From positions 17,934,291-17,998,290 of the forward strand of contig OZ020515.1 in NCBI GenBank assembly GCA_963971425.1: DNA of 64,000 nucleotides. The letters run 5' to 3'. Position numbers and translations under genes: made by a program. Positions 2-61,720 of this stretch are shown one piece after another. Within the stretch, counting starts at the first letter, position 1, and every line of letters begins with the position of its first letter. This DNA is from Bryoerythrophyllum caledonicum. Its lineage: Eukaryota > Streptophyta > Bryopsida > Pottiales > Pottiaceae. The notes beneath the pieces are model-generated. The model made no database searches, had not been told where the DNA came from, and saw nothing but the letters and a program-made list of their open reading frames with translations.

Positions 2-1279
2 AATCATTACAATCTAACACAGCTCCCCCATGAAGTTGAGATTGATGAAAACGGGTTTGCATTCGATTATCATATTGCCATCTTCTTTGAGGTAGGGGAA
101 CTTGTGATATTAAAAGATGATGTGATGGCAATGGTTGTTGCAAGATTGAAACACATGAATATTGTAGTGGGGGATGTACTTGGTGAACCCATTGCAATCA
201 TGTGTTATCATGGGTCAAAGAGATGGAGTGGAGCAATCAAAATACACCTCAAAGACCCTAAAACGGATGGAACGGGGCTCTTACAAGGTCTCCGTCCATT
301 CATCCTTAAGTTGGATGAACAAATCTGTAGGGGGAAAGTGTGTAAATCCTTTGACTCCATTGCCATTGCGAGTTTACTCTCTATAAGAGTAAATAGTGCA
401 AACCTAAAAGGCAAGAAGTGGTATAACATGTTTGAGGAAGTTGTCATGGATGGTTTCTCTAGAGGTCTAGATTTTGAAGTGACCAATATCTAAAAAAATG
501 AAGGGGCAGACTTTGCTTGGATCAAAGCACCGTCCCCGGATGAAGCTAAAAGGATAAGATCCCTCAAAATTTCCTTTTCCAATGAGCTTATGGAAGCATC
601 ATTTGCAAGCAAGGGAAAGATGTCAGAGGATGACAAGGCCAAGAAAAACTCCGTAGTCTTAATTGTCAAAAATTTAAACAAAATCAAATCCATTTCATCA
701 CTAGAAGAGGGCATCAAAGCATACATGGGTGAAAGAAATGTGGTGAATGCCTTCTTTCGATTGGAAAATAGTAAGCATATAGGGTCTTGCAATATCCAAT
801 GTCTAAATGCGGCTGTATACAAAAAGTTTGTCAAACAAAATGCAAAAATATTAGGAAAATATGTCGAGTTTTGCCCCCATCCAAAAAGCTTGGATGGAAT
901 AAACGCACCAACATCCGAGGAGCTTACACGGCTTGGCTTCACAGATGTGAACACCGCCCTTGCCAATATCGTGCAAGCTTTGGAAAATGCACCAACACAA
1001 AACTTCACCAAATCAGACCTCAACCGAATGGTTGAGGAAGCTGTAAACAAAGGTGCAGTAACAACATTGGGGGAAATTAGGAAAGAAATGAGTTTGCTCA
1101 AAAACGAGATTGTGGAAGAAGCAAAGGTATATGCGGACAAGGTTCAAGCCGAATCAAATAGAAACTCAAGAGTCCAAATAGCCCTCCTTCAAAAGCAAAT
1201 GAGAACCACCTTGGAAACCCTTCAAGCCGACCACCCCGATACACTCGAAATTGAAGGCAATATGGACATGTCAAACTAG
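2..1279 (+). pseudogene. LINE ORF1 (gag-like RNA-binding protein), one in-frame stop
   Basis: Open from the window edge, so the start lies outside. A single TAA at 491-493 interrupts it and the same frame continues to TAG at 1277-1279. LINE copy 2 has Gln (CAA) at the aligned position, so the stop is probably a C-to-T change. The N-terminal part has a basic, RRM-like look, with segments such as WSGAIKIHLKDP and LLQGLRPFILKLDE. A second region (VVLIVKNLNKI) is followed by NVVNAFFRLEN and then a charged heptad-rich tail likely to form a coiled coil. ORF1 proteins of LINEs bind element RNA; that role is inferred. The C-terminal half aligns with 60877-61720 of copy 2. Confidence 0.8.
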
Positions 1280-1434
1280 CATTGACAAATGTAGCGGCGG
1301 GAAAAATACCACTTAAAGTATATATTTATACTAAAAACAAAAAACAAAACACAAAAATAAATAAACTATCCCTAGATACTATAATAGCAAAAACCATAAT
1401 TAAATTAAACCAAAAAACCAAAATAGTTGTATTT

Positions 1435-2963
<1,529 letters not shown>

Positions 2964-3003: not shown

Positions 3004-3066
3004 AACACTACTTATTTCAAACTATTAATTATACTCTGCGGAGACATAGAAACCAACCCCGGCCCA
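3004..3066 (+). other. 2A-like ribosome-skipping peptide in ORF2
   Basis: The frame encodes a hydrophobic stretch followed by CGDIETNPGP, matching the D-(V/I)-E-x-N-P-G-P consensus of 2A peptides at every position. The upstream part (YFKLLIIL) also resembles the Leu/Ile-rich region before known 2A motifs. In 2A peptides the ribosome fails to form the Gly-Pro bond, so the upstream product is released and translation goes on from Pro. Here that would separate the Asn-rich leader from the enzyme part of ORF2. The next codon after the final Pro is ATG (3067). Function is inferred from motif and position. Confidence 0.8.
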
Positions 3067-3726
3067 ATGCCAAATGTCTTCCAAAACCATCCAAAAGCAC
3101 ACAAAAGGTTAGCAAAAATATATTTTATTCCGAACACTATAAAACTCCACCCTGAATATCAACAACTAGCATCCTCCTTTGCACCACTCCTAAAAAACAA
3201 TCACATACTCCACCAAAACTATTCCACCCTCTATCCCAACATTTCCCACTATATACAGCAAAAAAACAACAACCACCCATCCACACACATCTTATTCGCC
3301 ATAATTACCACCCTCCACCCTTCAATAGATGAGTGCAACAACATCACCAACCAACATTCTACCAACATAAATCCAACATATTGGACGAATATATTACTAG
3401 ACTCCTTATCATCTCTACTTAATCCCCCCGAAAGACACATAGACACACTACACCCATACACTAAATTCCTAGAGGAAAAACAACACCTATTTGAACACAA
3501 AACTTCTCTACACAAAGACCTATATAACTTTATCCATAGCCAAACCCAACCCCCTTCCATCGATGAATTACAACTAAAATTTCCCTACTTCCCGAACAAT
3601 CTTATCCTTGAAGCTTTGAGATGCTTTGAACCAATTCACGATTACACGCACCCCACTCCGACACCCACCTACATCTCCCCTCCACTTTGTAACCTCAACA
3701 ATACAAACCACAGAAACACATATATA

Positions 3727-4500
3727 ACTACATGGAACGCCTCAACATTAAACACTGCTTTACCATGCATCCACAATCTAACCACCCATACCAACACACC
3801 TCCCGCCATAATTGCTATACAAGAAACTAAACTAACCGCTACTAAATCCACAAAATACATCCAAAAAACATTCCCCGACTATAAACTTATATTTAACAAC
3901 ACACATTCTATCATTTAATGCATCCAACAAAGAAGGCCATATACACCAACAAGAGGTGGTCTACTCATGCTCATACACCAATCATATGCCTTCCCCGGAA
4001 ATATCACTAAAATCCCTACCCCGGCTAATATATCACCATATCTCCAAATTATTGAAATTACTAACCGACCTCTCCAACCATGGCTCATTCTCCACCTATA
4101 CATGCCCTCACTCATAGAAGACACTAGGTTTATTCCGGAAATCCAAAATTCCATCACCTCACAAATAAATACACACACTAATCATACAATAATACTTTGC
4201 GGAGACTTTAACCGAGATATCGCCCTTATTGGTAGACAAAACGGAGAGACTCTCACCCCCCCACTTGACACAGACTATCAATGGCAAAACTATACGAACA
4301 ACCTAGAATTACACTTAATCCCAACCGACACACAATACTCCCGTCAAGGTGGACTTAATTACACTCACACTAGCCTAATTGATGGATTTTACATTAAAAC
4401 ACCTAATCATACCCGATATACATCTACCACCAATACCTCAACCAACCTAAACTCGGACCACTTCCCAATCCAGCTTAATATACCTCACAACACCCTTATA
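3727..4500 (+). other. AP-like endonuclease domain of LINE ORF2
   Basis: The usual exonuclease-endonuclease-phosphatase motifs appear in order: TWNAS with Asn at 3736, IQETK with Glu at 3823, CGDFNRD with Asp at 4204 and Asn at 4210, TSLIDGF, and NSDHFP with the Asp-His pair at 4456-4461. The domain nicks target DNA to prime reverse transcription. The TAA at 3916 falls inside it; copy 2 reads through that position with Arg, so the stop looks like a point lesion. Confidence 0.9.
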
Positions 4501-5394: not shown

Positions 5395-6260
5395 AACATG
5401 TGCCTAAAAAATCTGGGATCCAACAAAGCCCCTGGCCCGGACCATATACCCAACTCAATTCTAAAAAACATGCCCCCAAGATTCCACGATCTTTTATCAT
5501 TATTTTTCCTTCATTGTTACAAACAAAAATCCATCCCCGCATCTTGGAAAACAAGTCTAACAATTTTATTATACAAAAAAGGCAACCCATCCACACTAAC
5601 TAACCACCGACCTATTGCCCTAGCTAACACCATTTACAAATTATATACTAGTACACTTACATCAATACTATCGGCCTACGGAGAAATACACCAAATATTA
5701 CACGAAAGCCAAGAAGGGTTTAGAGCAGAGAGAAGTACCACACGGCAACTTCTAACCCTCATTGCCGCTCTTGAGGATGCAAAATTCACAAATAAAGACA
5801 TTTACATACTCTATATTGACTTAAAAAACGCATTCGGTTCCATTGACCATCCTCGACTGCTAGCCATTATGAGTGATCTCGGATACCCGGAAGACGCAGT
5901 CACACTAATTGGCAATATATATTCCCAATCTACCACTACATACGTTGGAGAATTTTTTGGTAAAACACGCCCTATCTCCATCCAACGTGGTACCATACAA
6001 GGCGACACATTGAGCCCATACCTCTTTATTATTTTTCTAGAACCTCTACTAAGATGGCTTCAAAGAGGAATTAATGGCTACACATTTGGCACCTCTAAAG
6101 TCACTGTAAACTCGGCTGCACATGCCGACGATCTAGCGGTCATCTCCGGACGTCTTAAATCACTCCAAATTCAATTAGACAAAATTGACAAATTTTGCCT
6201 ATGGACCGGGATGGAACTTGGGGTCCAAAAATGTGCTGTAACCGGATGCCCAAACAAATT
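5395..6260 (+). other. Reverse transcriptase domain of LINE ORF2
   Basis: Palm and finger motifs are all visible: NKAPGPDHIPNSIL, a NHRPIAL segment, QEGFRAERST, LYIDLKNAFGSIDH (first catalytic Asp at 5818-5820), GTIQGDTLSPYLF and AHADDLAVI (catalytic Asp pair at 6127-6132). His replaces the more usual Tyr or Phe before ADD. The matching place in copy 2 reads ADK, so that copy is catalytically dead while this one keeps its Asp triad. Confidence 0.93.
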
Positions 6261-8627
6261 CAAAATAAATCCGACCACCTTCAAAGCCGTTATCCAAGCT
6301 ACCAATATTCACTATCGTAACCAACCCATCCCGGTACTCAACCAAAACCAACCTTACATATACCTTGGAATAAACCTAGTTCCATCATTAAAATGGAAAA
6401 TTCAAACCCATGTTACTACTACAAAACTTATTAAACAATGCAACGAACTTACATTATCCCCAGCCTCACTACAACAAAAAATAAAAATGATTGATACCGT
6501 CATACGACCGGGTATCTCATATAGTTTCTATGCGGTCCCTTATTCCATGCCCGCCATAAACAAACTTGATAAAAAAATCATAGCCATACAAAAGAAAGTA
6601 TGTGGACTCCCTAAATGCACGCCTAATGTCATCACACAACTCCCCCACGAACTATTCGGACTAGAAGCTTTTTCCCTTAAAAATGCCTATCTACGTTGCA
6701 TTGGAGAACAACTCCAAAATGCACTTAACGACGAGGGTCGACTAGGCCTAATTTATAGTGGACTCCTTCGGCACATTCTTGCCATTTATGGAGGCACACA
6801 ACACCTCCAAAGACTTAAAAAAACTGACTGTCTTCGGTCTCCTATTACCCGCACCCTCTTTCTACTTAAAACAGAAGGTCAAACATTTCTAAAAAGCACA
6901 CTAGAAGATTTCCTATTAGGCCCCGCACCGCTCGAACAAAATTGGGCAAATGAAATACATAACCTCCCTCGCCTTGACCGACAATTATCCGCCAAACTCC
7001 TACAAAAACTTTTTTCCGCAAATATTACCGATCTAAAACAAATTACACTACCAAATGGGACACAACTTATGGACGACAAGAGCTACAAGACATTCTATGG
7101 TACCCCTCATAAATTAATAAAAAGTGCACTAAATATTGCCAAACAATTATTTTGTCACCCCCATGTCTCCCTATATGCTCCAACCCTTGCACCACTCACG
7201 CCCCACCTTACACACTCAAAGACCCGTACATCATTGGTCACAATGACATTCATCCCCACATTAATTTTCCACTAATACCTCTAAACCCGCCACACGCACG
7301 ACCATATGCCCCTCCACCACATATATTAAAAAATCCTTCCATATATCCAATAAACAACATAACCGCGCATAAACATAGAAAGTATATTGACTCCAACAAC
7401 ATAAGCAAACAACACACGTCTTACCTATGCCATTGTTCCCACAATAACACCACCTACACCAAATGGCTCCCGCAACGAAATCTTTTCCCCTGGCACAACC
7501 CAAACGCCTCCTTATATAGCACAGAAATCCTCACACAATACTACCTTAAAACTCAAAACAATTACTACCAGAACATCATACAAATACACCACCCCCAAGC
7601 ACAACCTCGAGATAGAAGATTTGTCACGCCACCTCTTATTATCCCCCTCCTTAACATTTCTACAACCGAATGCAATCCCGAAACTGACATCTTAGCACAA
7701 ACAAACTCAATCAAAATACAACAAGATAATGCCCAAATATATGAAGATAATGGTAGGCACCTAATAACCATACCACTCGCTAGACTACAATGGTTGTGGA
7801 ACCAATATCACAACGCACTACAAACCCCCATTAACATTGAACCTATACCCCAAACATTTGAAACCGAAATTGTTTGGCTATACCAAAGATATAAATACGG
7901 TATATCCAAAAATGACCCCCTTAAAAATGCACATTACACATTACCCGATCCAATCCTAGACTACCTTATTACATCTTTAAATATCACACACTCATACTTC
8001 TCATCTCCCATTACGTGTTCCACAAAAATCTCAAAATTCTTCTCTCCATTCGAACGTGATAAGATCTTTGGTTCGCTCGGTAAAGCCTTTGATTACAGAT
8101 GGAGCGGAATAGGCCTTGCACACCCTCACAACGTAGAAGAAACACAACAAGCAACACATTGGGCACGCCTAGCGGCAAACAATGACCCCAACCACAACAT
8201 CACCATTATTATTACTCCAGACACTACTTGGTACCACAACTCTAACCCACATTTAGGCCCATTCCCAGACTCTCACATCATAACACTATTTGAAGCGGAC
8301 TCTATAATTTACAAAGAACCCACTATACCACCGCAGATACAAACACCCCGCCTCGAACCAGCAACTCTACGTATCCTATGTATACATCACCAAACTCGAG
8401 AGATAGGTACTCCGGAAAACCTAACTCATCTCACCTCGATAGCAAAAAACCTAAACATTAACAAGGTATACACCGCAATTGCCCCTCCTACACCTATTTC
8501 TACCTGTGTAAACCGTAACAAAAAATGGGCTAAAACCCCCCATACATTCATCCCCGCACTACCAATTACCGAATTGAGCCTCCCCCTCCTCTATCACCAA
8601 ACTAATATCGACCCTAAATTTGACCCC

Positions 8628-9060
8628 AACTTTAGCTATTACACTGATGGCTCTTTTAAAGAACCAACCGAAGTAAGCCCAGGACATTGGCACCGAGAAA
8701 AAGCCGGTTATGGGATATACAACTCAACCAAACAAATAAAATTAGGTAAAAGACTACACGGACTCCAAAACATTTTACGAGCCGAAATGATGGCTATACA
8801 CAAAACCCTTAAGATAATCACCACTCAATACCCAAACGAACCGGCCCACATTTTTACAGATTGCGTAAATGTATTACATCTTCTAAATACACACATTAAA
8901 CACCCCACTTTACACAACAGCCACCCGGACAAAACTATCCTTACATCTATGGTTACAATGCTCCAAAGTCGCACACAAATTACTACACTCCACAAAGTCC
9001 GAGCTCACGCTAACATCGCCGGCAATGAACAAGTCGACAAACTAGCAAAGGAAGGAAGAG
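8628..9060 (+). other. RNase H domain of LINE ORF2
   Basis: YYTDGS (Asp at 8646), LRAEMMAI (Glu), IFTDCVN (Asp) and VRAHANIAGNEQVDKLA (His and final Asp) give the full DEDD-plus-His set of type I RNase H. It would remove the RNA strand after reverse transcription. Copy 2 keeps the same residues at 53600-54130. A frameshift lies just after the domain, near 9060, beside runs of A and C. Confidence 0.9.
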
Positions 9061-9424
9061 AAAAACCCACAAGGATGCCGAACACCCATACGAACACGCC
9101 CATGCCACCCCATATTACTACCATAGATATGAATGGTCCTCTATGGGCGAAACTCCCGACAAAGGCCCCATACGATTTTTGGACAAATATCTCAAAAAAC
9201 ATGATCTCATAAACAACCTAGAAAAACTCACAGAAAATTTCCCCAATATTGAAAAATGGACCGGCAACCCAAACATCCACAACATACTGTCCAACAACTT
9301 TTGGAAAAACCCAACCATTACGGACCCACAAATCACATGTCTAATCAAATTTCGCACCGGACAATACATGGGTAATGCCCGTAAACAACTCTTCTTTGGA
9401 AATGAAAGATTTCCTACAATAACA

Positions 9425-9481
9425 TGTCCAATTTGTAACACCACAGACCCGGACACATGGCTACATGTCCTACTCAAGTGC
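9425..9481 (+). other. C-terminal CCHC-type zinc knuckle of LINE ORF2
   Basis: The sequence CPICNTTDPDTWLHVLLKC has the spacing C-x2-C-x9-H-x4-C. This class of knuckle sits downstream of RT or RNase H in several LINE clades and helps bind nucleic acid. LINE copy 2 keeps it as CPICTSTDPDTWLHVLLKC on the minus strand. Confidence 0.75.
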
Positions 9482-10102
9482 CAAAACCCCCATATACACT
9501 CACTAATTATCAAAAGACATAACAAAGCCGTATGGGCTATCCGTAAATTACTTATATCATCAACCAAATCCCGTTGCTTCATTCTCATGAATGCTGGAAC
9601 CTTTAATAACAACCCACAAGAAAATACGGTCCCCCCTTGGCTATTACCATGCACATGTCATACTCAAAGATGCCACTATAATGCAAGATTCAAACCAGAC
9701 CTACTATGTGTTAGAGGGCTTTCATACAAAGACCCCCCACCAAACCACATAGACCCTAGTCTCACTATTCAGTTTATCGAATTCACATATTGCAATGATA
9801 GATTCTCCCCGGATACTATCACTAATAAAACAAACAAATACCAACCACTACTTGACGATATTCAAGCACTAGGATGGAAAGTAGACCCCCTCATTGTCAT
9901 CACGGCGGGTGCTAGAGCCACCACCTTCATCCCCTCAATGACAACCCTTGAAGAAACATTTAAAATCCCCATCACTTCAATCAAAACCACCTTTTCAAAT
10001 ATTAACACTATTGCAATTCAACATGCTATGTCGATACTCCTTCATAAACGTAAACTTGAAAACAACCAACCCCTTCTAGACGCTTCAAACCCCCCTCCAT
10101 AG

Positions 10103-12925: not shown

Positions 12926-15900
12926 ATGACAACTACCTTATTTCAACAGAGAACGCAAATCATTTCTTCCTCTCTTTCACTAAACAATAGTCGTCACTTA
13001 GCAGTCGCTCTCGCATCCATTTTGAAATCAAAATACATGGCGTCTCTAACTTCCTATCAAAGGGGCCTCCCACTTGTCATGTCTATAGCTCATGATGGCA
13101 CAGTCATTGTGCCCGAGTCCTTGTTTTCTATTCGTTTTAGTTATCGGAGTGGTATAATTCATGTTGAGCATGAGGTCTTTAATAGTGATGGTGTCCACCA
13201 GTAGTCTACTTATCAAAAGAAAGATCGAGTTGCAAACGGCTTTGTCTCGAATTTGGATCGCGGTTCGTTCAAAGTGTACGGTGTCACCGAGGCTCAAATG
13301 TCCAGTCATGCGTCAACTGTCGTTATGTCCCCTCCGGACAATTCTGGTGATACGATGTTGGTGTCTGGTTTAGACACCAGCTCTATCCCAAGTGTCTATA
13401 TTCTTAGCAACATAGAGAATGAGGACCTGTTCAATATTAACCTAGGAGAGTCAAGGAACCCCTTCAAATCTCAAAAATCGGTTCATCCTGCTCTTTCCCC
13501 CCACTTCCTTCAAGATCTCAAATGTCTCTAGCTATTTCCACAAGAAAACCTCCAATCCATCCCAATTCGAGAAACGTCTGTAGCATACTGATGCATGTCC
13601 GTCAAATATGTAATAGGAGAGGGTCCAGGTCTGAGTTGTCAAAAATTGATATTGATAGTCTAGATTTGAACCACGTGAAGTATCTGCCACTAAAATATGA
13701 TGGAGACATGATATTTGAACTACCACCGCTCTCAGAGGGAATTCTTGTATAGTTTGGAGGCGGCCTCGACGGTATGAATAAACAATTTGACGGTCACACG
13801 TGGTGCAGAACAATGACTACAAATATCAAGAATGATTTTGGCCTCATGTACCGCAAATCAGTATGTACCGGGCATTTACAATGCCCAAACATCACTTGTG
13901 ACTATAAATGCAGAAACGAAGGACGTACGAATCAAGCCGAGTGGAGCGGGTTTGCCTTCACCCCATTTCCACTCAACGGAGCACCATCCGACAAATCTAC
14001 ACCGGCATGTAAGTTGTGTCAAACCCCTTCAATTTGTCTTGTTCTTTGTGATGCACGAATTTATTATGTGACCTCTAGTGATCCTGAGCGCGCACATGCT
14101 GCTATCCATTTGGGACATCATCATCCAATCTCCAAAGGCGTCGATCAAACGGCTATGGTCCTCATGCACGATTGCATTGCGAAGGAAGTTTAGCGTACGC
14201 CCAAGGCTACTAACTCAACAATTATCATGGCTGCGGGCAAGAATTTCCTATCCGACTACTTGATCCGCCCTAGTTCCTCATCATCAAACCTCGAAGTAGC
14301 ATCTATGGATGTTGTCCTGGATCTATTCGAGACTCTCTCATCTCCAAACATAAGGAATTTAGTGTCAACGTGCAAGAGGTTCTATAGTGGAGGGAAACGA
14401 GTAATGGACAACATCATGGAGTTGAAGGAGTCGTCCAAGTTTGTATTCATCCATGAAAACAAGTTCCCGGGGCAATCCAATGTAAAGTTTTTGTTTTTAA
14501 AATGTCCGTGGATCGTCCAGGGAGTCGTGTAGACGTTGTTAAGCATATGCAACCCGGGAATGACCTTGAAGATTGTTGGTTGATGTTTGATCATGTCAAA
14601 CGGATAAAGGACTGGACTACTATGGCATGTCATCTGTATGACAGTAAGTATTGTAGAGTCATGACAATCGCCATGTGTGATATGCAATCCGAGGATGCTC
14701 AAGCGCAACAACTATTTTGGAAGAACTTGAACGATACAATGAAGAACCATGGCCTTGCGGAGACGAACTTCAAACACTTCATGACTGACAGCGTTGGAGC
14801 AAATTGGCATGCCGTACGTCGAGTTTATGGCAGCGGAGACATAGACAAGCCCATGGATAACATAGAACGAACATGTTTATTCCATTGGACTAAGTGTCTT
14901 CAGCGAGCCACCACCAAAAACATTCTTCCTGGCTTTCAAGAGCAGCACATTACTCTCTACAAGACCTGGAAGAATGCGAAGACACAAGAGAAGGCTGAAG
15001 CTCAATACAACGTAATTCGAGCGTGGTGGGTATCATCCGGTTCCACTATGGAAACCAAGCGTCGTACTCTAGAAGATTGGATGGCGTTTTGGCACTTCCG
15101 TAATCGACAATGGGGCGGCGCCATGCAACTTGTAAGTGCTCTCTCTCTCTTTTATATTTTACATTTCAATATATTCTTAAGTAGTAATTTGAAGTATGTA
15201 ATGACAATTGGAGTGTCTTCATAGGATCTCACGCTTGACGAAAGAGCCGACATGCCTTTGTGCAACCTTGCCAAAACAGTCCACAACCGTTGGCTCCAAC
15301 AATCCGGAAACACAATGACATGTCTCTACGCTACAACAGTAGATGACCTCATCCGTGCCTTCATGCAAATCACGTCGTATCGAGTATGGTTGAAAGGAGG
15401 CATGCCAAGAAAAGGTCCGGACATAGGGACACTTCGGTTGCGATCCGCACAGCGTTCGGGTGATCCGAAACTCATAGCTGAGGCTGTAAGGAACTTCCCT
15501 GGGGCCGAGGATCTACAGACGAGGACGGGCGGCCTAGAAGCTGCCGATATTTTTGGGTCTACTAAACGGAAGCTTAACATGCCACTAGGGTCTAGCCACG
15601 ATTCCCACCGATCGGATATGGTGAACTACTCTCTCCCTCGCAATGGCAGAAGAGTAACTCGGGCGCGCATTGAGGAGGTCCTCAGCGGACATGACTCTAG
15701 AGTCCAGCACACAACATCCGTTATGGAATCAGACTGTGATCCATCCAAGTGGCACATTGCCCGCCTCCAGAAGAAGTCCGCTCAAAAATGCCAAGCATTG
15801 CAAGCTCACACTACGCAGTCCTGCAATACAAAAATTGCGCGTGTGAGTCATGGAACTCCAGCCCCCACATCTGTCGGTATGAAGAAGGATTACAAATCCC

Positions 15901-16592
15901 CACGGAATGTTGCTGCTGAGTTCTGGTTTTGTCCCGATGATATTGGCCGGTGTGTTAAGGGATTGAAGAAACCGTTTGTGGTGGATTGGCCAGCAGTTCC
16001 AATGACATGGCCTATAAAGCGTGGCACAAATTTAACACTAGAGGAGGTACTAGCGTTGGAGAAAGCAGGTTTTCAATTGCAGCCAGGTGGAGCTCTTTCT
16101 CCACAAAAATAATTTCAAGTGTCTATGGACATGCCACTTCCGCGATCAGACTTCCCTACTCCAATGAATCCGAATTCTTACCACACCTTTCGTCACAGCT
16201 ATGCGATTCGTAGAACGACGGATGCTCCCTCGATTGAGCAAGGCAACAAGTGGTCAAGCGTTGCTCTTATGAATAATTGCTACGTCTCCAACCTCTTTGC
16301 GATACCGTACCCAGGATGGGGATGCATTATCACTCCTGTAACAAGGAAGGAGAAGTCCTATTGCGTGACATTCACAGACCTGCCAGGGTGTTTGTGCCCT
16401 GATTTTTTGAAGATGCAATCAGAGGCGTTGGGGAAGAAGGGGAAATGGATGTATTGCAAGCATGTGTACTACGTCTTACGATACCTATGTAAGTTGGACT
16501 ACCATGAGGACTTATTCATGCATGCTCCAAGCTACAGCTTTAATGAAGTCATGCGCATTCTAGAGCTTGCCAACATCGCTGAAGAAGCGTGA
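12926..16592 (+). pseudogene. MULE transposase with N-terminal zinc cluster and C-terminal SWIM finger (decayed)
   Basis: The N-terminal part (12926-13560) is variable sequence. Next comes a Cys/His cluster (CTGHLQCPNITCDYKC, KLCQTPSICLVLC) and the RNase H-like catalytic core (YCRVMTIAMCDMQSED, FMTDSVGANW, ERTCLFHWTKCL). A GT-AG intron of 93 nt at 15132-15224 is in phase 0. The C terminus holds a SWIM finger, CLCPDF followed by YCKHVYYVLRYL, and the frame ends at 16592. Damage: TAG at 13202, a frameshift near 13525, TAG at 13750, TAG at 14191, one base lost near 14483, TAA at 16110. The Glu expected in the NL-A-E-x-VH motif reads Lys (near 15275), by my recollection of the family. Confidence 0.8.
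15132..15224 (+). other. Spliceosomal intron in MULE transposase
   Basis: GTAAGTGCTC donor after ATG CAA CTT and TCTTCATAG acceptor before GAT CTC. The 93 nt intron is AT-rich, in phase 0, and removing it joins two stretches of the same transposase frame. It marks the element as one expressed in a plant-like nucleus. Confidence 0.8.
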
Positions 16593-32925: not shown

Positions 32926-33248
32926 TTTTTTTTGTTGAGTGTTGTTGACTAGTTTACTGAGTGTTGAGGAATCACATGTGGCATGAGTATGTCCAAGAGT
33001 ATTTTTTGGTTCACTCAATTGATGCACATGCCATGGTTATCATCTAATGCACATACTACGGTTATCACCTAATGCACATGCCAATGTGAGTGTTATGTTG
33101 TTGATTGATTTATTTAGTGCACATGCCATAAGCTGAGTCCTTTGTGTTTACTGAATTATATAATCCAATTGCCATAGGTTGAGTGTTATATTGATTACTT
33201 ATTGAAGAGCATTTAGCATTGTATCAACATCATAAAAAATAGTCTATA

Positions 33249-34259
33249 ATGGCAATTTCAGATGAAATCCGTGCTCGCATTATACTAGGTTTGAGTGAGG
33301 GAGGAAATACAGGAGTTCAAATTGCAGCCACTACTGGAGTTTCTGTTAGAACAGTTCAGAGGTTAGTAAAAACGTTTAAAGAAGATGGAACTTATAAGCG
33401 CAAACCTTGCGGTGGAAGTCACGCTAAAAAACTTAGTGAGAGAGATGTGAATAATATTGTGCGTTATGCAAAAACTCATCGTCGTTCCTCGGTCTCAGAG
33501 ATTACTAATATGTGCCGTACTCAAGTGTGTAGACGTACTATTCAAAGGGTATTACATAAAAGTGGTATTTTTAGTCGAATTGCAGTCAAAAAACCTTTCT
33601 TGACATCCCATCACATGTCTCAACGGTTAGCTTTTGCTCAGAAGTACCATGGATGGAGTCCAAAAGAGTGGGAGCGTATTGTTTGGACAGATGAATCTAC
33701 TTTTGAGATTGGAAAAAGTTCTCGGCAAATTCATGTTTGGAGAAGTGCATATGAGCATTATTCATCAAGTTGTATAGTTCCTACTTTTAAAAGTGGACGG
33801 ACACCTTTGATGATTTGGGGTGCATTTGCTGGAGGACAAAAGTCACAACTTGTCTTTATGCCAAAAACTCAACGTTCTGCTAAAGATTTTGTTGAAGTGG
33901 TCTACGATGGCGAATTGATTCATTTCTTGAGTAGACTTCCAGAAGGAGTGCTAATGGAAGATGGTGCACCTGTTCATCGTAGCAAAACATGTGAAGAATG
34001 GAGACAAACCCACCAACTCGAAAAGCTCAATTGGCCTGCAAACTCTCCCGATCTCAATCCAATCAAGAATGTCTGGAGGATGCTAAAAGATGTTGTGCAA
34101 CATGGCAAGGAATGCCCTAGAAACTTAGAAGTGATGAAGGTAGTTCTTGAAAAAGAGTGGAATTTGGTTAGTGGTACAAAGCTCCTTCAACTATGTCATT
34201 CTATGCCCTCAAGGTTACAAGCGGTGATTGATGCTAATGGAGGACATACACGTTGGTAG
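33249..34259 (+). CDS. Tc1/mariner transposase, full-length frame, third catalytic residue Lys
   Basis: 336 residues, a normal length for Tc1 transposases. The N terminus has two helix-turn-helix segments (GVQIAATTGVSVRTVQRLVK and VCRRTIQRVLHKSGIF). The catalytic part has IVWTDESTF and LMEDGAPVHRS, then SPDLNPIKNVW. The spacing from the second Asp to this Lys is exactly 34 residues, so Lys (AAG at about 34067) sits where DD34E enzymes have Glu. The stop codon and last codons lie within the right arm. The frame is otherwise unbroken. ATG 33249 is the first in frame and matches the degenerate copy at 47204. As it stands the enzyme should be inactive for cleavage but could still bind DNA. Confidence 0.93.
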   Translation: MAISDEIRARIILGLSEGGNTGVQIAATTGVSVRTVQRLVKTFKEDGTYKRKPCGGSHAKKLSERDVNNIVRYAKTHRRSSVSEITNMCRTQVCRRTIQRVLHKSGIFSRIAVKKPFLTSHHMSQRLAFAQKYHGWSPKEWERIVWTDESTFEIGKSSRQIHVWRSAYEHYSSSCIVPTFKSGRTPLMIWGAFAGGQKSQLVFMPKTQRSAKDFVEVVYDGELIHFLSRLPEGVLMEDGAPVHRSKTCEEWRQTHQLEKLNWPANSPDLNPIKNVWRMLKDVVQHGKECPRNLEVMKVVLEKEWNLVSGTKLLQLCHSMPSRLQAVIDANGGHTRW

Positions 34260-52070: not shown

Positions 52071-52690
52071 GAGATGATTTGTAAAGATTAATTGTGTATT
52101 TTTAAGAGGTTTTAAGGGGTATCATGTGATTCTAGGAGAGGCTAGTTGTTTTTTTGAGATTTTGTTTGTGTAGAAGTATGGACATTGCATGTTGTATAGC
52201 AATGATATTGATTTTTGTGAATGTCTTCTTAATTGGATTAACGGAAATATTGAATGTTTTTTCAAGACTTTTCATGGTGGAGATAAAGGTAGTAGCTCTA
52301 ATCCCAGTCGCAATGACAATAAGGGGTCAACTTTCCATCCAAGAGTTGCAATGTCATTAATAAGTGGTTGGTATTTATTAAATTTGTTTTTGATTGCTTC
52401 TAAGGAAAATCTGTCATTACAATAATTGAATTCGATAAATTGGATAGTAAGGTTTGTATTTTTGTGGTCCAGTGGGGGGTCTTTATATGGTAGTCCTTTG
52501 ACGCATAGTATGACTAGTTTGAATCTTGCATTACAATGACATCTTTGGATTCCACATGTGCATGGAAGTAGCCATGGAAGGACCGTGTTCTCTTATGGTT
52601 TGTTGTTGAAGGTTTCGGCATTGAGAAGTATAAAGCAACAATTTTTTGTTCTTGTTATAGAAAAACAAAGACATGAGTAGAGAGTAGATC
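52071..52690 (-). pseudogene. LINE ORF2 C-terminal fragment (third LINE)
   Basis: Translates in broken frames to the ORF2 end: FILLNAETFNN, GIRATTFISTMKSLEKTFNI and INIIAIQHAMSILLHKQ, the last matching copy 1 IAIQHAMSILLHKRK. It is not continuous with copy 2, which stops matching near 52700 after TFKNINI and then restarts at an earlier place in the protein. So two LINE ends are joined head to tail here. Confidence 0.75.
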
Positions 52691-55600
52691 CGAGAAACCT
52701 GGTGAGGTGATGTTGATATTTTTGAAGGTGTTTGTAATTGTATCAATAGGTATTTTGAAGGTATCTTCTAGGGTTTTTATAGATGGGATAGAGGTGGTGG
52801 CTCGAGCACCGGCTGTAATTACAATAAGGGGGTCCACTTTCCATCCGAGGGTAGTGATGTCAACCATGAGGGGTTGGTATTTATTAATTTTGTTTTCGAT
52901 TGTTTCCGGGGAGAATCTGTCATTACAATATGTGAATTCGATGAATTGAATGGTGTAGTCTTGGTTAATGTGGTCGGATGGGGGGTCATTCTATGGTAGA
53001 CCCCTAACGCACAGTATGTCTGGTTTGAGTCGAGCGTTGCAGTGGCATCGTTGAGTCTCACATGTACATGGGAGTAGCCATGGTGGGATTGTATTTTCTT
53101 GTGGGTTGTTGTTAAAGGTGCCAACATTCATGAGGATAAAACATCTTGATTTGTTATGGGAGGTGATTAATTTACAAATTTCCCATACGGCTTTGTTATG
53201 GCTTTTGACGATTAGGGAGTGTATGTGGTGGTTATGACATTTAAGTAAAACATGTAGCCATGTGTCGGGATCCGTGGATGTGCATATTGGGCATGTTATG
53301 GATGGGAATCTTTCTATTCCAAAGAAGAGTTGTTTTCGAGCGTTTCCCATGTATTGTCCGGTACGGAATTTAATAAGGCATGTGATTTGTGAATCGGTGA
53401 TGATGGGGTTTTTCCAGAAATTTGTGAAGAGTTCATTGTCTATGTTGTTGTTACTAGTCCACTTTTCTATGTTGGGGAAGTTGTCTGAGATTGTGTCAAG
53501 GTTATTATATAGGTCTTGTTTTTTGAGGTATTTACTGAAGAATCTAATGGGGCCTTTATCAGGGGTGTCTTCTTTGGAGGGCCAGTCTTCTTTTTGGAAG
53601 TAGTATGGGGTGGCGTGAGCGTGTTCGTGTGGATCTTTGGCATTTTTGTGTGATTTTTCTCGGCCTTCTTTTGCAAGTTGATCCGCTTGTTCGTTCCCAT
53701 CTATATCGGCATGGGCTCGGACTTTGTGTAGGGTTGTGATTTGATTTCTTTTTAGTATCATTTGGACCATTGATTCTAGTATGATTTGGTCGGGGTGGCT
53801 ATTGTCGAGGGTAGGGTGTGTTATTTGGGTGTTTAATAGATACAGTGCATTATTGCAGTCTGTGAATATGTGTGCTGGTTCATTGTTGTATTTTGTTGTG
53901 ACAATTTCTAGTGTTTTGTGGATGGCCATGAGTTCTTCTCTGAGAATATTTTGTAATCCATGTAGTCTTTAAGCTAATTTTATTTCTTTTGTAGAGTTGT
54001 GTATTCCATAACCAGCTTTTTCTCTACGCCAGTGACCCTGGTTGATTTGTTCTAGTGGTTTAAAGGAGCCATCGGTATAATAGCTATATGCAAGGTCAAA
54101 TTTTGGTGAGGTGGTAGTTTGGTAGTCCGGGAGGGGTTGGGGGGGGGGTAAGAGGTAATTTAGTGTATAGCTATTGTAACTTAGTTTTGACCATTTTTTG
54201 TTTCTATTGACGGGTGTTCGTATAGGTGTCGGTGGGGCCATTTTTGTGTATTGCCGGTGTATGTTTAGGGTTTTTCCTATGGAGGTAAGTTCTTTTAGTT
54301 GCTCTAGAGAGCCAAGGGTGTGGTTATGGTGGTGGACACATATTATTTGTAGTGTGGATGGTTCTATCCTAGGCTTTTTTAGTTGCGGTGGTATAGTGGG
54401 TTCTTCGTATGGTATTGAGTCTGCTTGAAATAAGGCAATGATATGAGAGTCTGGAAATGGACTTACTTGTTGGTTAAAGTTTTGGTACCAATTTTTGTCT
54501 GGGGTGATGATGAGTGTGGATGTGTGGTTTGGGTCATTTTTGGCAGCAAGGCGTGCCCAGTGTAGTGTTTGTTGTGTTTTCTCTTCATTGTAGGGGTGCG
54601 CTATACCATTACCGATCCATTTGTCGTCAAAGGCCTTCCCTAGGGAGCCAAATATATTATCTCTTTCAAATGTGGAGTAGTATTTTTGTAGTTTGGTGGA
54701 ACATGTGACTGGGGAGGAGAAGTATGACTGTTCTATGTTAAAGGATGATATAAGTGAGTCTAAGATGGGGGTGGGTATTGTGTATTGTGCATTTTAGAGG
54801 GGGTTATTTTTTGAGATTTGGTATTTGTATCTTTGATATAGCCAAATTAATTCGGTTTCAAATGATTGGATTATTGGTTCAATGTTTGTGGAGGTTTGTA
54901 GTTTTATATTGTATTGGTTCTATAGCCATTGGAGTCTGGTAGTGGTAATGGTTTGTATATGTCAGCCATTTTCTTCATATAGATGTGCTAGGTTGTTGTT
55001 TATTTTGATTGTGTTTGAGATTGTGAGGATATCATTTTCGGGATTGCATTCTGTGGTGTAGATTTTTAGGAGTCGGATGATTATTGGTGGGGTTACGGAT
55101 CTTGTGTCTTGGAGTTGTTCTTGGGGGCGGTGGACTTGAATGATTTTGGAGTAGAATTTATTTTGGATCCTTTGATAGTACTGTTTTAATTTTTCGATAT
55201 TGTGAGTGGAGGTATTATGGTCGTGTTGTGGAAACAGGCTTCTTTGAGGGAGCCACTTGTTAAATGTGTTGTCGTTGTGTTGCCATTGGCATAGATATTT
55301 GATGAATGTGTTTTATATGTTGTTGATATCTTTATTTTGTATATGTTTATGGTGTATTATTCTATTGATGGGATATAGGGTGGGGTTCTTGAGGAGGTGT
55401 GTTGGGGGCCGGGGGTGATAGGGTAGTGTCGGATTGGGGGAGTGGGTTGGTTGAGGGGTAGTTCTTGGGGAGATGTTGTTGGTAGTGATAAATGGGTCAT
55501 CGAGTCTATGGGAATGTGGGTGTATGAGGCAAGGGGTGTTGCATGTTGTTGGACATGTTGGGCGGCAAAAGAGTTGTTTGGCCATATTTAGAGCGCATTT

Positions 55601-58600
55601 AATAAGTTTGGATGGGGTAAAGTGATAGGTTTTAAAGTCCTCATTATTCATGATGTGTGTGCCATTTGGGAGAGAAATTTGTTTTAATTCAAAGATATTT
55701 TTTGAAAGGAGTTTTTGTACAAGTTTTTTGGAGTGTTGGAGGTTGAGTATATTGTGATTTTGTGTTTCTTGGCTTTATGATATTTCTAATGGTGTGGGAT
55801 CAAGGAGGAAGTTTGGGATTGTGCTTTTGAGGTGAATTTTAGCTATATGTTTTAATAAGTAGAGTGTACGAGTTATTGGTGATCTTATGCAATCTATTTT
55901 TTTAATTCTAGGAATGTTATTGGCTCCACCGTGTTGAGCTAGGACACATTGAGCTAGTCCTTTGTATATTTTCCCGAGTTGCCCTTTGTCATTTAGAGCA
56001 TTTTGTAGTTGTTCACCTATGCATTTGAGATAAGCATTTTTTAGAAAGAAGGCTTCTAAGCCAAATAAATTTTGTGGAAGTTGGGTTATCGCATTTGACA
56101 TACAATTTGGCATACCACAAATGGTATTTTGTATGGCTATAATTTTTGATCTAGTTTTTTGATGGCTGGCATAGAGTATGGTACAACAGAGAAGGTGTAT
56201 GCTATGCCTGGGCGTATTACAGTGTCAACCATTTTTATTTTTTGTTTCATAGTGGCCGGACATGTTGTTAATTCTTTGCATTGTTTAATGAGTTTTGTGG
56301 TTGTGGTGTGGATTTGGATTTTCCATTTTAAAGAGGGAACAAGATTTGTGCCTAGGTATACATATGATTCATTTTGGTGTAGTATGGGGATTGGTTGGCC
56401 ATGGTAGTTGATGTTAGAGGCTTGCATTAGGGCTTTAAATGTAGTTGGATTCAATTTGGATTTATTTGGACAACCGGTAGCAGTACATTTTGGGACTCCT
56501 ACGTCCATACCGGTCCATTTACAATATCTATCAATTTTATCAATTTGTGTTTGTAATGATTTTATTTTGTTAGTTATGGTGGCAAGCTTGTCTGCGTAGG
56601 CGGCAGAGTTTATGGTAATTTGTAACGTTCCAAACATGTATCCATTATTGCCTCGCTCTAGCCATCTAAGTAGTGGTTCTAAAAATATAATGAATAGATA
56701 TGGACTAAGGGTGTCTCCTTGTATGGTTCTTCTATGAATGGGGATAGGCTTAGTCTTTCCAAAGTGTTCACCTGTGTAGTAAGTAGATGATTGTGAGTAG
56801 ATATTTCCAACTAGTGCAGTTGCATCATTTGGGTATCCAATGTCAGTCACTATTTCTAGTAGTCGAGCGTGATCTACAGATCCAAAGGCGTTTTTGAAGT
56901 CAATGAATAGAACGTATATGTCTTGATTTGTAAATCTTGCGTCTTCTAGTGTCGCTATTATGGTTTGTATTTGTCTAGAGGTACTTCTTTTTGCTCTAAA
57001 TCCTTCTTGAATATCGTGTAAGATTTAAATTTTTTCACCATATGAGGATAGTATGAAGGTAAGTGTGCTAGTGTATAGTTTATATATCATGTTAGCTAAT
57101 GCAATTGGTCTATGATTTGGTAGTAGTGAAGGATCTCCCTTTTTGTAGAGTAAGATTGTTGCACTTGTTTTCCATGAGGCTGGTATTTATTTTTGTTTAT
57201 AACAGTGAGAGAAAAATAGAGATAGTAATTTATGAAATCTTGGGGGCATATTTTTTAGTATTGAATTTGGTATGCGGTCTGGTCCTCGGGCTTTGTTGTT
57301 TCCGAGGTTGCGGAGACATGTGTCGTATTTGGCTCTATTGAAGTATATATGCAATGGAATTTCAGGCTCACCTCGTTTGTCTAAGGTAAGTCCATCTAGA
57401 TCATGCCATGGGTATTGACATACTGCACATGTGCATTTGGTTGGGTGTTGTAGTTGGTAATTACATGTTGGTACTGTGGGTCTATTGTTTTTTGTTTGTT
57501 GGTTAAATATTTCATTTGCAATGTCTTCGAGACTAGTTAGAGTGTTGTTGTGTTGGTCAATGATACAATCTAGTTGTGGAGATTTGGATTTTTTAAAAAC
57601 TTTTCTATTTAATTTTTTAGGGCTGGTTTCGTATAATTGTCTGTATTTTGAGATGGATTTTTTAATATTATCTTGGGAATGTTTTGTAGTTACTTTACGG
57701 GCTTGTATATTGGCATTTTTTGCGATTCGTGCAATATCTTTTATCCAAGTGTCGTGGGGTAGGTCTGGGAGAGGTAGGGTAGGAATTTGGGTATGGGTAG
57801 GCTTAGTATTTTGTTAACTATGGGATGATTACGCCATTGTGGGTTATTTTTCACGATTCTAATAGTTTTTTGTATTATATGGTATGTAGCTAGGTGTTGT
57901 TTCCATATTTTTGAAAGTTTGCGGGGTAAGTAACCACCTTGTTGTGATGTTCGGTTAGTCATTTGTGGTATTGGTTGGGCTTTACAAATTTGTTCTAATG
58001 TATCGGAGATGTTATTGATAAGTGTATCTAGGATGTGGCATGTTTCGTGCCATTGTGTTTGAGAGAGTTAGTTATTGTTTTCAAGGATGTTTATGAGAGA
58101 GTCTATTTGTATGGAGTTTTTTTCAAAGAACTTTGTATTGAATTTTTCTAAGTTATCTTTTGGGATGGGGTTTAATATTCTTATATTATCGTTGTTTGTG
58201 GTTATAGGGGTACGACTAATTAGTATGTTATTTGGGATGTGGAGTTGTATAGGCGTATGATCCGAGTTGAGAATAGTGTCTTTGTTTGTTGTAGAGGTGT
58301 ATTGTTTGTATTGATATAAAAGTTGTCTATTAGGCTCCAATCTCTGTAGTTATATCCGCCTTGTCTGGAGTATTGTGTATCAGTATTTGTGTAGGTGAAG
58401 TTTAGGCTTTCCGTGAAGTAAAGCCATTGGAAGTCTGTGTTTGGGGGGATGTTATGGCTACCGTTTTGTCGACCGATTAATGCTATGTCTCTGTTGAAGT
58501 CTCCACATAATATGTAAATATAATTAGGGTTATTGTTTATTTGTGATGTAATATTATTTTTTATGTCTATAGTAAATCTGGTGTCTTCGGTATGAGAGGG

Positions 58601-59700
58601 CATATACATGTGAAAGATTAACCATGGTTGTAGTGGTTGATTAGAAATTTTGATTATTTGGAGGTAGGGAGATATGTGCATTGGGGTGGGAATTTTTTTG
58701 ATGTTGCCCGGGAAAGCGTATTTTTTGTGTATTAGTGTAAGGAGGCCACCGCGACCTGGTGTGTATGGTCTGCGTTGTTGGATGCATCTTGTTAGTGCAT
58801 GTGTGTTGTTAAAAATAAGTTTGTAGTCTTGGAATATGTTTTGTATGTATTTTGTAGATTTTGCGGCCGATATTTTTGTTTCTTGTATAACTATGACGGC
58901 CGATGGTGTATCTGTATGTGTGACCAAGGTGTGTAGGCTAGGGAGAGCGGTGTTTAAAGATGAGGCATTCCATGTGATTATGCTTGTGTTTTCATTATTT
59001 GAACGAATATTTTGGTTTTGTGGGGGGAGGTAAGACGGTGGGGGTGGATGGGTATATTCTGGTATGTGGTTGAAACATTTTAGTGACTCATTAATTAGTT
59101 TGTGAGGTAGGTAAGGAAATTTTTGTTTTATTGTGTTGCTTGAAAGGGGTATATTTTGACTATGTAAAAAATCGTATAATTCTTTGTGTATTGAGTTCCC
59201 GTGGTTTATGATATTTTGATTTTCTTCAAGAAATTTTGTATAAGGGTGAGGGGTATGAATATGTCTTTTGGGTGGGTTTTGTAGATTTGATATGGTTCTT
59301 AGTAGTGTGTTAGTCCATGTATTTATGTTTGTGTTTTGAGGGTTTAGGAGACGGTTACATTCATCTATGTTAGGGTGGATGGTGATTACTAGGGCATATA
59401 AAATGTGTGTTGATGGGTGTGTATTTTGTTGTTGTATGTATTGGACAATATTTGGGTGTGTATTGTTGTGTAGTTGATGTAATGTATGTGTAGTTTAAAA
59501 AAATGGTGCAAATGTTTGAGCGATGTGTTTGTATTCTGGTTGTAGTTTTATGGTATTTGGTATAAAGTATATTTTGGCATTTTTTTAATGCGTAGTGGCA
59601 TGTCTTTTTAGTACATTAGGCATGGGTCTCGGATTGGTTTCTATATCTCCACTTAAGAGTAACAAGATTTTGTAGTGCAATGGTTTAGTGAGTTGCTTTT
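52690..59700 (-). pseudogene. LINE copy 2 ORF2 (endonuclease, RT, RNase H), decayed
   Basis: Pieces in order: N-terminal conserved region (59600-59033); endonuclease (58990-58068) with TWNAS, IQETK, CGDFNRD and NSDHTP; RT (57600-56114) with a recognisable core but AYADKLATI, losing one catalytic Asp; thumb and C-terminal region (56113-54800); RNase H (54130-53600) with YYTDGS, REELMAI, IFTDCNN and GNEQADQLA; CCHC CPICTSTDPDTWLHVLLKC near 53300. Multiple stops (for example TAA near 53971 where copy 1 has Lys) and frameshifts. Useful as the aligned partner that shows copy 1's lesions. Confidence 0.87.
59624..59680 (-). other. 2A-like motif in LINE copy 2 (proximal copy)
   Basis: Encodes LHYKILLLLSGDIETNPRP. 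The D-I-E-x-N-P core is intact; Gly of NPGP is Arg (GGA to AGA), so skipping should be lost. The LLLLSGD context is typical of 2A peptides. It lies at the same place as the intact motif of copy 1, followed by MPNVLKRH against MPNVFQNH. Confidence 0.8.
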
Positions 59701-60876: not shown

Positions 60877-61720
60877 TCACATGTTTGGTTCAAGTCTTGG
60901 TTTGTTGACTTTGCCTGCGAAGGCTATCAAGCCTTCAAGTGTGGCAAGCATGGATTCTTGAATTTCTTCCATTTGTATCTTCAATTCATCATGTAGTTTG
61001 TCGGTGTATTCCCTATTCTCTTGCCTCATCTTCTTGTTGTTGTCTTCTAATAGTTCCACCATATCTCTTTTGGTAATGTTGTCACTCTTCTCTTGCATAT
61101 TGAAGGTGGATATAGTGTTGACGATTGCCGTGTTGACGTCGTCAAAGCCAAAAGTTTTCACTTGCTCATCGGTTGGTGGTTTGATTCCTTCCAAGCTCCT
61201 GCGGTGGGGTGAGAAATCAACATAGTTTCCACCAAATACATGTGTTTTCTTCACAAAAGTTCTATAGACAATGGCTTTAGAACATACGGCATTGGCACTA
61301 CCATTGTGGTTGGTGACATTATCCAAGTGGAACCAAATTCATCGTACATTAGCTCCACCCATGACTCTATAGATTTCATGGGTGGTGCTCTCAACATTAA
61401 GTGAGATGGGGAGTGGTGAGAGGATAAGAGTCAATGCATCTTTTTTAGCTTTGGTTTCGATAGTACCTTTGGGTCCTTTTGTGTCAAGGACTTGTCTTGC
61501 TTGCAAGACTTTCCCACGCAAGGTAATATGGTGCAATAGTATCTTCTTCACTTGTTGCGGAGTCATGGCGATGATGAAGGCATGTGAATCATTAGTGGCC
61601 TTTTGTACTCCCGATATTTCAAACTCATGTCCCTGGTGGAAGCTATTTCCAAGTGCTTCTTTGAAGAGTGTTTGCGCGGAGATCCTTGTAGTTATCGTTT
61701 TGGTTTGATTGGAAATAAAC
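60877..61720 (-). pseudogene. LINE copy 2 ORF1, C-terminal half, decayed
   Basis: Two frames joined by a TGA at about 61336: KEALGNSFHQGHEFEISGVQ and onward to YRVMGGANVR-stop, then VTNHNGSANAVCSKAIVYRT to LEPNM at 60877. SLEGIKPPTDEQVKTFGFDD matches copy 1 SLDGINAPTSEELTRLGFTD. The last 60 residues are coiled-coil like. The GVQKATND segment supplies the Gln opposite the stop in copy 1. Confidence 0.8.

What the first reader, a model, noticed from the sequence alone, without database searches (positions are those of the whole stretch)
3004..3066. Canonical 2A ribosome-skipping motif in a plant-like LINE ORF2
The motif CGDIETNPGP matches the 2A consensus at all fixed positions and has the Leu/Ile-rich lead-in. 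The other LINE copy keeps a homologous LLLLSGDIETNP motif at the same place, although the two copies differ a lot elsewhere, so it was held by selection. 2A peptides are known from picornavirus-like genomes, trypanosome LINEs and some animal LINEs (established knowledge). I am not aware of it as a standard feature of land-plant LINEs, but cannot check. It would cut the low-complexity leader from the enzymes.
Basis: partly seen in the sequence, partly recalled or inferred. Interest (0 to 1): 0.88.

Follow-up and report, generated by a model that had tools for sequence, protein, structure and literature searches.

The report
2A ribosome-skipping motif in plant LINEs
A large family of jumping genes in what looks like a land plant carries, at the start of its copying enzyme, a strictly conserved short peptide signal known from viruses and animal LINEs that makes the ribosome skip one peptide bond, so it probably cuts the enzyme free from an upstream protein.

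Summary
The motif is real. Window 3004-3066(+) encodes NTTYFKLLIILCGDIETNPGP; about 5e-5 such cores are expected in the window by chance. It fits the published StopGo/2A core and its Leu-rich, (A/S/C)G-ending lead-in (PMC12846837).

It belongs to the family, not one copy. The host assembly (437 Mb) holds 1,377 exact GDIETNPGPM sites, reversed control 0. The motif is intact in 51 of 52 genomic copies read around it. Over 14 picked copies the core has pN 0 and pS 0.23. Both window copies are dead, and the second reads NPRP. Activity is untested.

Beyond the finding: in window-type families, 27 of 33 copies with a recognisable ORF1 end keep the 2A frame stop-free back to the ORF1 stop, at -1 to ORF1. 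In 16 of these 27 no in-frame AUG precedes the motif. A conserved G-NCA-AAC-UAR junction lies there. Best reading: -1 recoding near the ORF1 stop joins ORF1 to ORF2, and the 2A then frees the enzymes. The 2A step is well supported; the recoding step is inferred. My searches found no paper on 2A in plant LINEs, but two key papers could not be read.

The parts
3019..3066 (+). 2A/StopGo motif KLLIILCGDIETNPGP; predicted missing bond between Gly 3061-3063 and Pro 3064-3066
3067..3069 (+). ATG directly after NPGP; first ATG in this frame since the stop before 1255
2..1279 (+). ORF1 (C-terminal part at the window's left end), frame broken by TAA 491-493; real end TAG 1277-1279
   Evidence: tblastn to ORF1 of intact copy L018, 51% identity
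1255..1279 (+). 25-nt overlap of ORF1 with the 2A/ORF2 frame, which is -1 relative to ORF1
1262..1290 (+). junction ATGGACATGTCAAACTAGCATTGACAAAT: ORF1 stop with AAC before it and AAT 14 nt after that AAC
1440..2950 (+). (AAC)n/(CAA)n array in the leader, stop-free in the 2A frame
3067..3915 (+). ORF2 N-terminal domain after the 2A and the start of the endonuclease
3916..3918 (+). inactivating in-frame TAA
4090..4470 (+). endonuclease domain PF14529 (best stretch)
5581..6375 (+). reverse transcriptase PF00078 (best stretch)
7848..8219 (+). PCIF1_WW-like domain PF12237 (best stretch); PCIF1 motif NPPF not kept
8634..9059 (+). RNase H PF00075 (best stretch)
9029..10102 (+). last ORF2 frame segment, after a frame break
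59624..59650 (-). second LINE copy: degraded motif GDIETNPRP
52131..59650 (-). second LINE copy, ORF2 region, about 70-74% identical in DNA to the first, broken frames
60877..61338 (-). ORF1 piece of the second copy

Best explanation
The motif is a working-type 2A (StopGo) sequence at the N-terminal edge of ORF2 of an APE-type LINE. In intact copies the ribosome reaches it after translating ORF1 and a fast-evolving leader in the -1 frame. It fails to form the Gly-Pro bond of NPG/P, releases the upstream product, and continues to make the endonuclease-RT-PCIF1-like-RNase H protein as a separate chain starting with Pro-Met. Shown: the motif, its family-wide conservation, its reading frame, and the stop-free -1 frame back to the ORF1 stop in intact window-type copies. 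Inferred: skipping activity, translation of the leader, and how ribosomes enter the -1 frame (most likely -1 slippage at NCA-AAC just before the ORF1 stop).
For: Core D-I-E-x-NPGP, Gly before Asp, and an L/I-rich hexapeptide ending in CG fit the published consensus and its L-rich class (PMC12846837 sections 9 and 10). 51 of 52 genomic copies read around the motif keep GDIETNPGP (19 of 20, 20 of 20, 12 of 12). 1,377 exact sites genome-wide with varied codons, reversed control 0. Core pN 0, pS 0.231 over 14 picked copies; ORF2 dN/dS 0.11-0.23 in six pairs. Of 20 metagenomic homologues, 15 cover the site and 14 keep NPGP. Six near-identical copies differ by 1-8 nt in 5.5 kb (15 pairs; a seventh, L020, was compared without gaps and is uninformative), so the family moved recently. 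Frame: 27 of 33 window-type copies with the junction pattern are at -1 to ORF1 with 0 stops before the array, against 2-14 stops in each other frame; 16 of the 27 have no in-frame ATG before the motif. In other families 5 of 7 copies with ORF1 located, plus L065 and L066, are also at -1; in L065 the ORF2 frame opens 13 nt before the ORF1 stop codon, at CCGCCAAACATGTGA.
Against: No activity was measured. Six of 15 homologues deviate from the strict core at the enzyme-proximal site (Q at the E position in 3, H in 2, NLGP in 1); H was active in the cited assay, Q is not among the variants reported there. Eight of 12 second-type copies have LLLLLGG before D, not (A/S/C)G. 13 of the 27 frame-intact copies were fetched because their open frame was long. 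The overlap has no canonical slippery heptamer in the 7 second-type copies scanned, and no conserved RNA structure was found at the junction. 11 of 12 second-type leaders have in-frame ATGs, and so do 11 of the 27 window-type copies, so an own start is possible there. L053 has a 722-codon open leader but is in frame with ORF1 behind its stop, not at -1. In L029, extended to 2.3 kb, the leader opens without ORF1 junction or ATG. Five first-set copies and L039 are frame-broken.
Confidence: 0.8

Rival explanations
1. ORF2 simply starts at the ATG right after NPGP; the upstream frame is untranslated and the 2A look-alike is incidental or a nucleotide signal.
For: In the window copy this is the first ATG in the frame, and no ATG in any frame lies between 1290 and 3066. 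Metagenomic protein P0007 was annotated from that Met.
Against: The motif varies at synonymous sites but not in protein (pS 0.231, pN 0). The upstream frame is stop-free in 27 of 33 junction-bearing copies while the other frames are not. In P0012, P0013, P0015, P0016 and P0018 the residue after NPGP/NLGP is not Met. The ATG context has C at -3 (sequence).
Confidence: 0.1
2. The 2A works, but the upstream product is only the leader, begun at its own AUG, a non-AUG codon, or by reinitiation after ORF1; there is no ORF1-ORF2 fusion.
For: In-frame ATGs in 11 of 12 second-type leaders and 11 of 27 window-type copies; homologues P0009, P0010, P0015 and P0021 start with a similar Met-led hydrophobic N-terminus (P0015/P0021 23 aa, E 3.7e-4 in a tiny database). 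Near-cognate codons exist in the window leader. PMC5009743 passages say LINE ORF2 is thought to start by an unusual route.
Against: In 16 of 27 window-type copies no AUG precedes the motif, yet the frame is open right up to the ORF1 stop, and the overlap is as short as 13-25 nt in several families.
Confidence: 0.35
3. Entry into the -1 frame is by a short ribosomal hop (bypass): peptidyl-tRNA-Asn leaves AAC before the UAR stop and lands on AAY 14 nt downstream, instead of slipping by -1.
For: In 20 of 22 distinct window-type junctions AAC-UAR is followed 14 nt on by AAC or AAT, inside a second G-N-CAAAY; third codon positions are fixed while first positions vary.
Against: Two of 22 junctions have TAC or AAG there (L011, a broken copy, and L048, a frame-intact one). 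Other families do not keep the second Asn codon (L051, L055, L057 AAG; L061 AAA). The window-type junctions are related, so they are not independent.
Confidence: 0.1
4. Pseudogene relic: the motif has no present function.
For: Both window copies are broken.
Against: Near-identical copies with open frames of 2,500 codons or more exist in the same assembly.
Confidence: 0.02

Closest known systems
StopGo/2A sequences of RNA viruses, L-rich (LLLLSG-like) class
   Same: Core D(V/I)ExNPGP, Gly before it, L-rich lead-in ending in (A/S/C)G (PMC12846837, sections 9 and 10 read)
   Different: Found in a LINE of a plant-like genome; that paper reports no convincing StopGo in plant viruses (abstract and passages)
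[quoted passage not shown] Odon 2013)
   Same: 2A in frame with LINE proteins; existence stated in passages of PMC4981915 and PMC11512398
   Different: Odon 2013 and Heras 2006 are not held, so clades and positions could not be compared; here the element has a PCIF1_WW-like and an RNase H domain and an AUG-poor leader at -1 to ORF1
N-terminal 2A of sea-urchin NLR genes
   Same: 2A near a protein's N-terminus; works in Nicotiana benthamiana cells too (PMC4981915 passages)
   Different: There the 2A is also a signal sequence at the very N-terminus; here long upstream sequence precedes it
Green-algal LINEs with RT, PCIF1_WW and RNase H (Haematococcus, Pleodorina proteins)
   Same: Related RT; 19 of 120 listed hits carry PF12237
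   Different: None of the 114 proteins new has the 2A core; many do not reach the N-terminus

Membership tests
StopGo/2A | Core D/G/C/N-V/I-E-x-N-P-G-P | tested here: met
   Window and 51 of 52 copies; strict core in only 9 of 15 distant homologues
StopGo/2A | Suitable upstream hexapeptide (L-rich, ending in A/S/C-G) | tested here: met
   LIILCG in the window; 8 of 12 second-type copies have LLLLLGG instead
StopGo/2A | In frame with coding sequence on both sides | tested here: met
   Open frames on both sides in intact copies; translation upstream is inferred
StopGo/2A | Bond skipping in translation | not testable with these tools
   -
APE-type LINE | AP-like endonuclease plus RT | tested here: met
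   PF14529 and PF00078
APE-type LINE | 5'-truncated and full copies dispersed in the genome | tested here: met
   Copies on many contigs; L046 is joined to unrelated sequence within the leader
Canonical -1 frameshift site | X XXY YYZ heptamer in the overlap | tested here: not met
   None in the 7 second-type copies scanned; the 25-nt window overlap has none by eye
Canonical -1 frameshift site | Downstream stimulatory RNA structure | tested here: inconclusive
   No consensus pair in 12 junctions of 60 nt; more distant structures not tested
Translational bypass | Matched take-off and landing codons around a stop | tested here: inconclusive
   20 of 22 distinct window-type junctions; not kept in second-type families

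The most novel reading that the evidence does not exclude
In these plant LINEs two recoding events act in series: ribosomes leave ORF1 into the -1 frame at a conserved, non-canonical G-NCA-AAC-UAR junction (by slippage, or even by a 14-nt hop to a matched Asn codon), read through a stop-free low-complexity leader, and the 2A then splits the ORF1-ORF2 polyprotein. This does with StopGo what retroviruses do with a protease.
Probability: 0.42. Interest if true: 0.88.

Novelty: new variant of a known kind. Interest (0 to 1): 0.72.

Why it matters
Natural 2A use is described as mostly viral, with rare cellular cases, and no convincing case was found among plant viruses (PMC12846837). A strictly conserved 2A in more than a thousand genomic sites of a plant-like genome would extend it to plant LINEs and give plant-native 2A peptides. 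How LINE ORF2 is expressed is an open question (PMC5009743 passages); recent, near-identical copies with an AUG-less frame and a conserved junction make that directly testable.

Tried and rejected
Chance: rejected. Viral contigs: an A1 scan matched 103 stretches by pattern but none encoded a relative. Rfam and tRNA scans of the window gave 0 hits. A transposase search meant to name the host returned 91 proteins without organism names. Conserved RNA structure at the junction: none. Matched-codon bypass: kept as a rival only, since other families lack the second Asn codon. An NPGP in ORF1 of the L018 copy (VVEENPGP) has VVDASPNV at the same place in L016 and was dropped. A motile-sperm family search (PF04712) to place the host did not complete. 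Structure prediction was not used.

Full report
OBSERVATION. Window 3004-3066(+) encodes NTTYFKLLIILCGDIETNPGP in frame with the LINE endonuclease (PF14529), RT (PF00078), a PCIF1_WW-like domain (PF12237) and RNase H (PF00075) that follow in broken frames. Expected core matches in the window by chance are 5.3e-5. The second copy (minus strand, about 70% identical DNA) reads SGDIETNPRP: it agrees up to NP but has lost the Gly. Both window copies are dead.

FIT TO 2A. PMC12846837 (outline, passages and sections 9 and 10 read) gives the core (D/G/C/N)(V/I)ExNPGP, a Gly before p12 = D, and L-rich upstream classes ending in (A/S/C)G; representatives of four upstream classes were active in reticulocyte lysate. 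LIILCG-DIETNPGP fits. The same paper reports rare core variants, including His at the Glu position, with about 90% activity or more.

DISTANT RELATIVES. The region search gave 20 proteins. Fifteen cover the motif site; 14 have NPGP and one (P0013) NLGP. At the Glu position 10 have E, 2 H and 3 Q, so 9 of 15 match the strict core. P0009 and P0010 carry two motifs each. Seven leaders (P0002, P0003, P0004, P0005, P0006, P0008, P0021) share an 80-100-residue block ending at the motif. An RT search (143 hits, 120 listed) reached green-algal proteins named Haematococcus lacustris and Pleodorina starrii; none of its 114 new proteins has the core, but many do not extend far enough upstream to judge.

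OWN GENOME. The window lies in a 437-Mb, 894-contig assembly. From 40 scored DNA matches I fetched 20 copies: 19 have GDIETNPGP, and L011 has NPSP. That query included the motif. From 137 scored protein matches to the domain after the motif I fetched 20 more with long open frames: 20 of 20 keep it. From 99 matches to the second window copy I fetched 12, mostly with long open frames: 12 of 12 keep it. Together 51 of 52. Genome-wide, the degenerate pattern for GDIETNPGPM has 702 plus 675 exact sites, with 0 in the reversed control, and the 100 sites listed show varied codons. Over 41 copies (29 distinct sequences), conservation rises sharply from the leader into the motif, where every core residue is 100% except Gly at 97%. 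In 14 hand-picked window-type copies, all with an intact motif (L011 was not among them), core pN is 0 and pS 0.231, and lead-in pN 0.147 and pS 0.357. ORF2 dN/dS is 0.11-0.23 in six pairs. Six L018-type copies differ by 1-8 nt in 5.5 kb (15 pairs); a seventh, L020, differs by about 220 in an ungapped comparison, probably an indel, not checked.

FRAME UPSTREAM OF THE MOTIF. In the window copy there is no ATG in the 2A frame from 1255 to the motif; the first is 3067, just after NPGP. In intact copies the 2A frame stays open back into ORF1. Of 22 entries tested (20 loci and both window copies) ORF1 was found in 21, and 16 are at -1 to ORF1; one of these, window copy 2, has 18 stops in the leader. 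With the junction pattern, 33 of 41 copies could be scored: 27 are frame-intact with 0 stops between the ORF1 stop and the array and 2-14 in each other frame; 6 are frame-broken. Thirteen of the 27 come from the set picked for long open frames. Of the 8 unscored, L029, L030, L035, L037 and L044 did not show the full ORF1 end in the piece, L046 is 5'-truncated, and L026 and L028 are altered or decayed; L029, extended to 2.3 kb, still showed no junction. Sixteen of the 27 have no in-frame ATG before the motif; 7 of the other 11 share one ATG 102 codons in. In the array the 2A frame reads poly-N, poly-Q, N/H or Q/P in different families, so staying open seems to matter more than which residue is coded.

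JUNCTION. Among 22 distinct 81-nt junctions the search pattern itself fixed ATGGAY, the AA and the stop's T; positions not fixed by it are still constant: G at -7, C at -5, A at -4, C at -1 (22 of 22 each), G at +7, A at +10 and A at +12 (22 of 22), C at +9 and A at +11 (21 of 22), and C or T at +13 (21 of 22). The result is G-NCA-AAC-UAR-N4-G-NCA-AAY with a 14-nt period. Third codon positions are fixed while first positions vary, which points to nucleotide-level constraint. In the second-type families ORF1 was located in 7 of 12 copies; 5 of 7 are at -1, and so are L065 and L066. Their ORF1 ends read TCA-AAC-GUG-GAU-UGA or NCA-AAC-AUG-stop. In L065 the ORF2 frame opens just 13 nt before the ORF1 stop codon. 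NCA-AAC therefore lies where the frame change must occur, but the second Asn codon is not kept there, and no canonical heptamer or conserved structure was found. Against this reading: 11 of 12 second-type leaders have in-frame ATGs; L053 has a 722-codon open leader that is not at -1; L061 is broken.

LEADER. Between leader pairs of second-type copies pN/pS is about 0.5-0.75, and 17 of 22 internal gaps are multiples of three: weak coding constraint. Leaders grow partly by duplicating the 2A segment: L058-L060 contain a degenerate second copy (GGDMETNPRPMPN), and L063 has two intact motifs in one frame 170 codons apart.

MECHANISM. Shown: motif, conservation, frame, open leaders. Inferred: bond skipping; translation of the leader; -1 entry near the ORF1 stop. 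I favour an ORF1-leader product released at NPG and an ORF2 enzyme starting Pro-Met. If recoding is inefficient, this would give much ORF1 and little ORF2, as gag and pol do (recalled analogy).

HOST. NAM/NAC (PF02365) gives 31 exon-wise matches at about 18 loci, with 0 of 14 control genomes ringing. CpG o/e is 0.55 and CHG o/e 0.59 in the window.

LITERATURE. Searches listed no paper describing 2A in plant or algal LINEs. Odon 2013 and Rao 2025, the likeliest places, were seen only in reference lists. Passages of PMC5009743 note that bypassing was considered for TART and mammalian LINE ORF2 and that the route is unresolved.

Noticed in passing
window 7848-8219 (+), and 19 of the 120 proteins listed: A PCIF1_WW-like domain (PF12237, E 2.8e-10; PCIF1 chain 6irx at E 0.012) sits between RT and RNase H of this LINE clade; the PCIF1 catalytic NPPF aligns to HPHN here, so it may be a non-catalytic cap- or CTD-related module. 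A search for PCIF1 with retrotransposon, reverse transcriptase and RNase H found no paper.
   Followed up: partly
P0009, P0010; L063 (two intact motifs 170 codons apart): Some copies carry two 2A motifs in one frame, produced by duplication of the 2A segment; this would release a short middle peptide.
   Followed up: partly
window 1440-2950 and leaders L009-L048: Long (CAA)n/(AAC)n and AAC-CAC arrays, up to at least about 890 codons without a stop or ATG (L030 with L049), persist between ORF1 and ORF2.
   Followed up: partly
L018 ORF1 N-terminal region: VVEENPGP, close to a rare 2A variant with Val at p12, in ORF1 of the L018 copy; VVDASPNV in L016.
   Followed up: no
window 33243-34259 (+) and 36585-37106 (-): Tc1-type transposase frames: the first 338 aa and open (HTH_Tnp_Tc3_2, DDE_3), the second partial (HTH_Tnp_Tc3_2).
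   Followed up: no
window 14457-16592 (+): A transposon-like gene with in-frame stops at 15222-15224 and 16110-16112; 91 unnamed homologues, no Pfam hit.
   Followed up: partly
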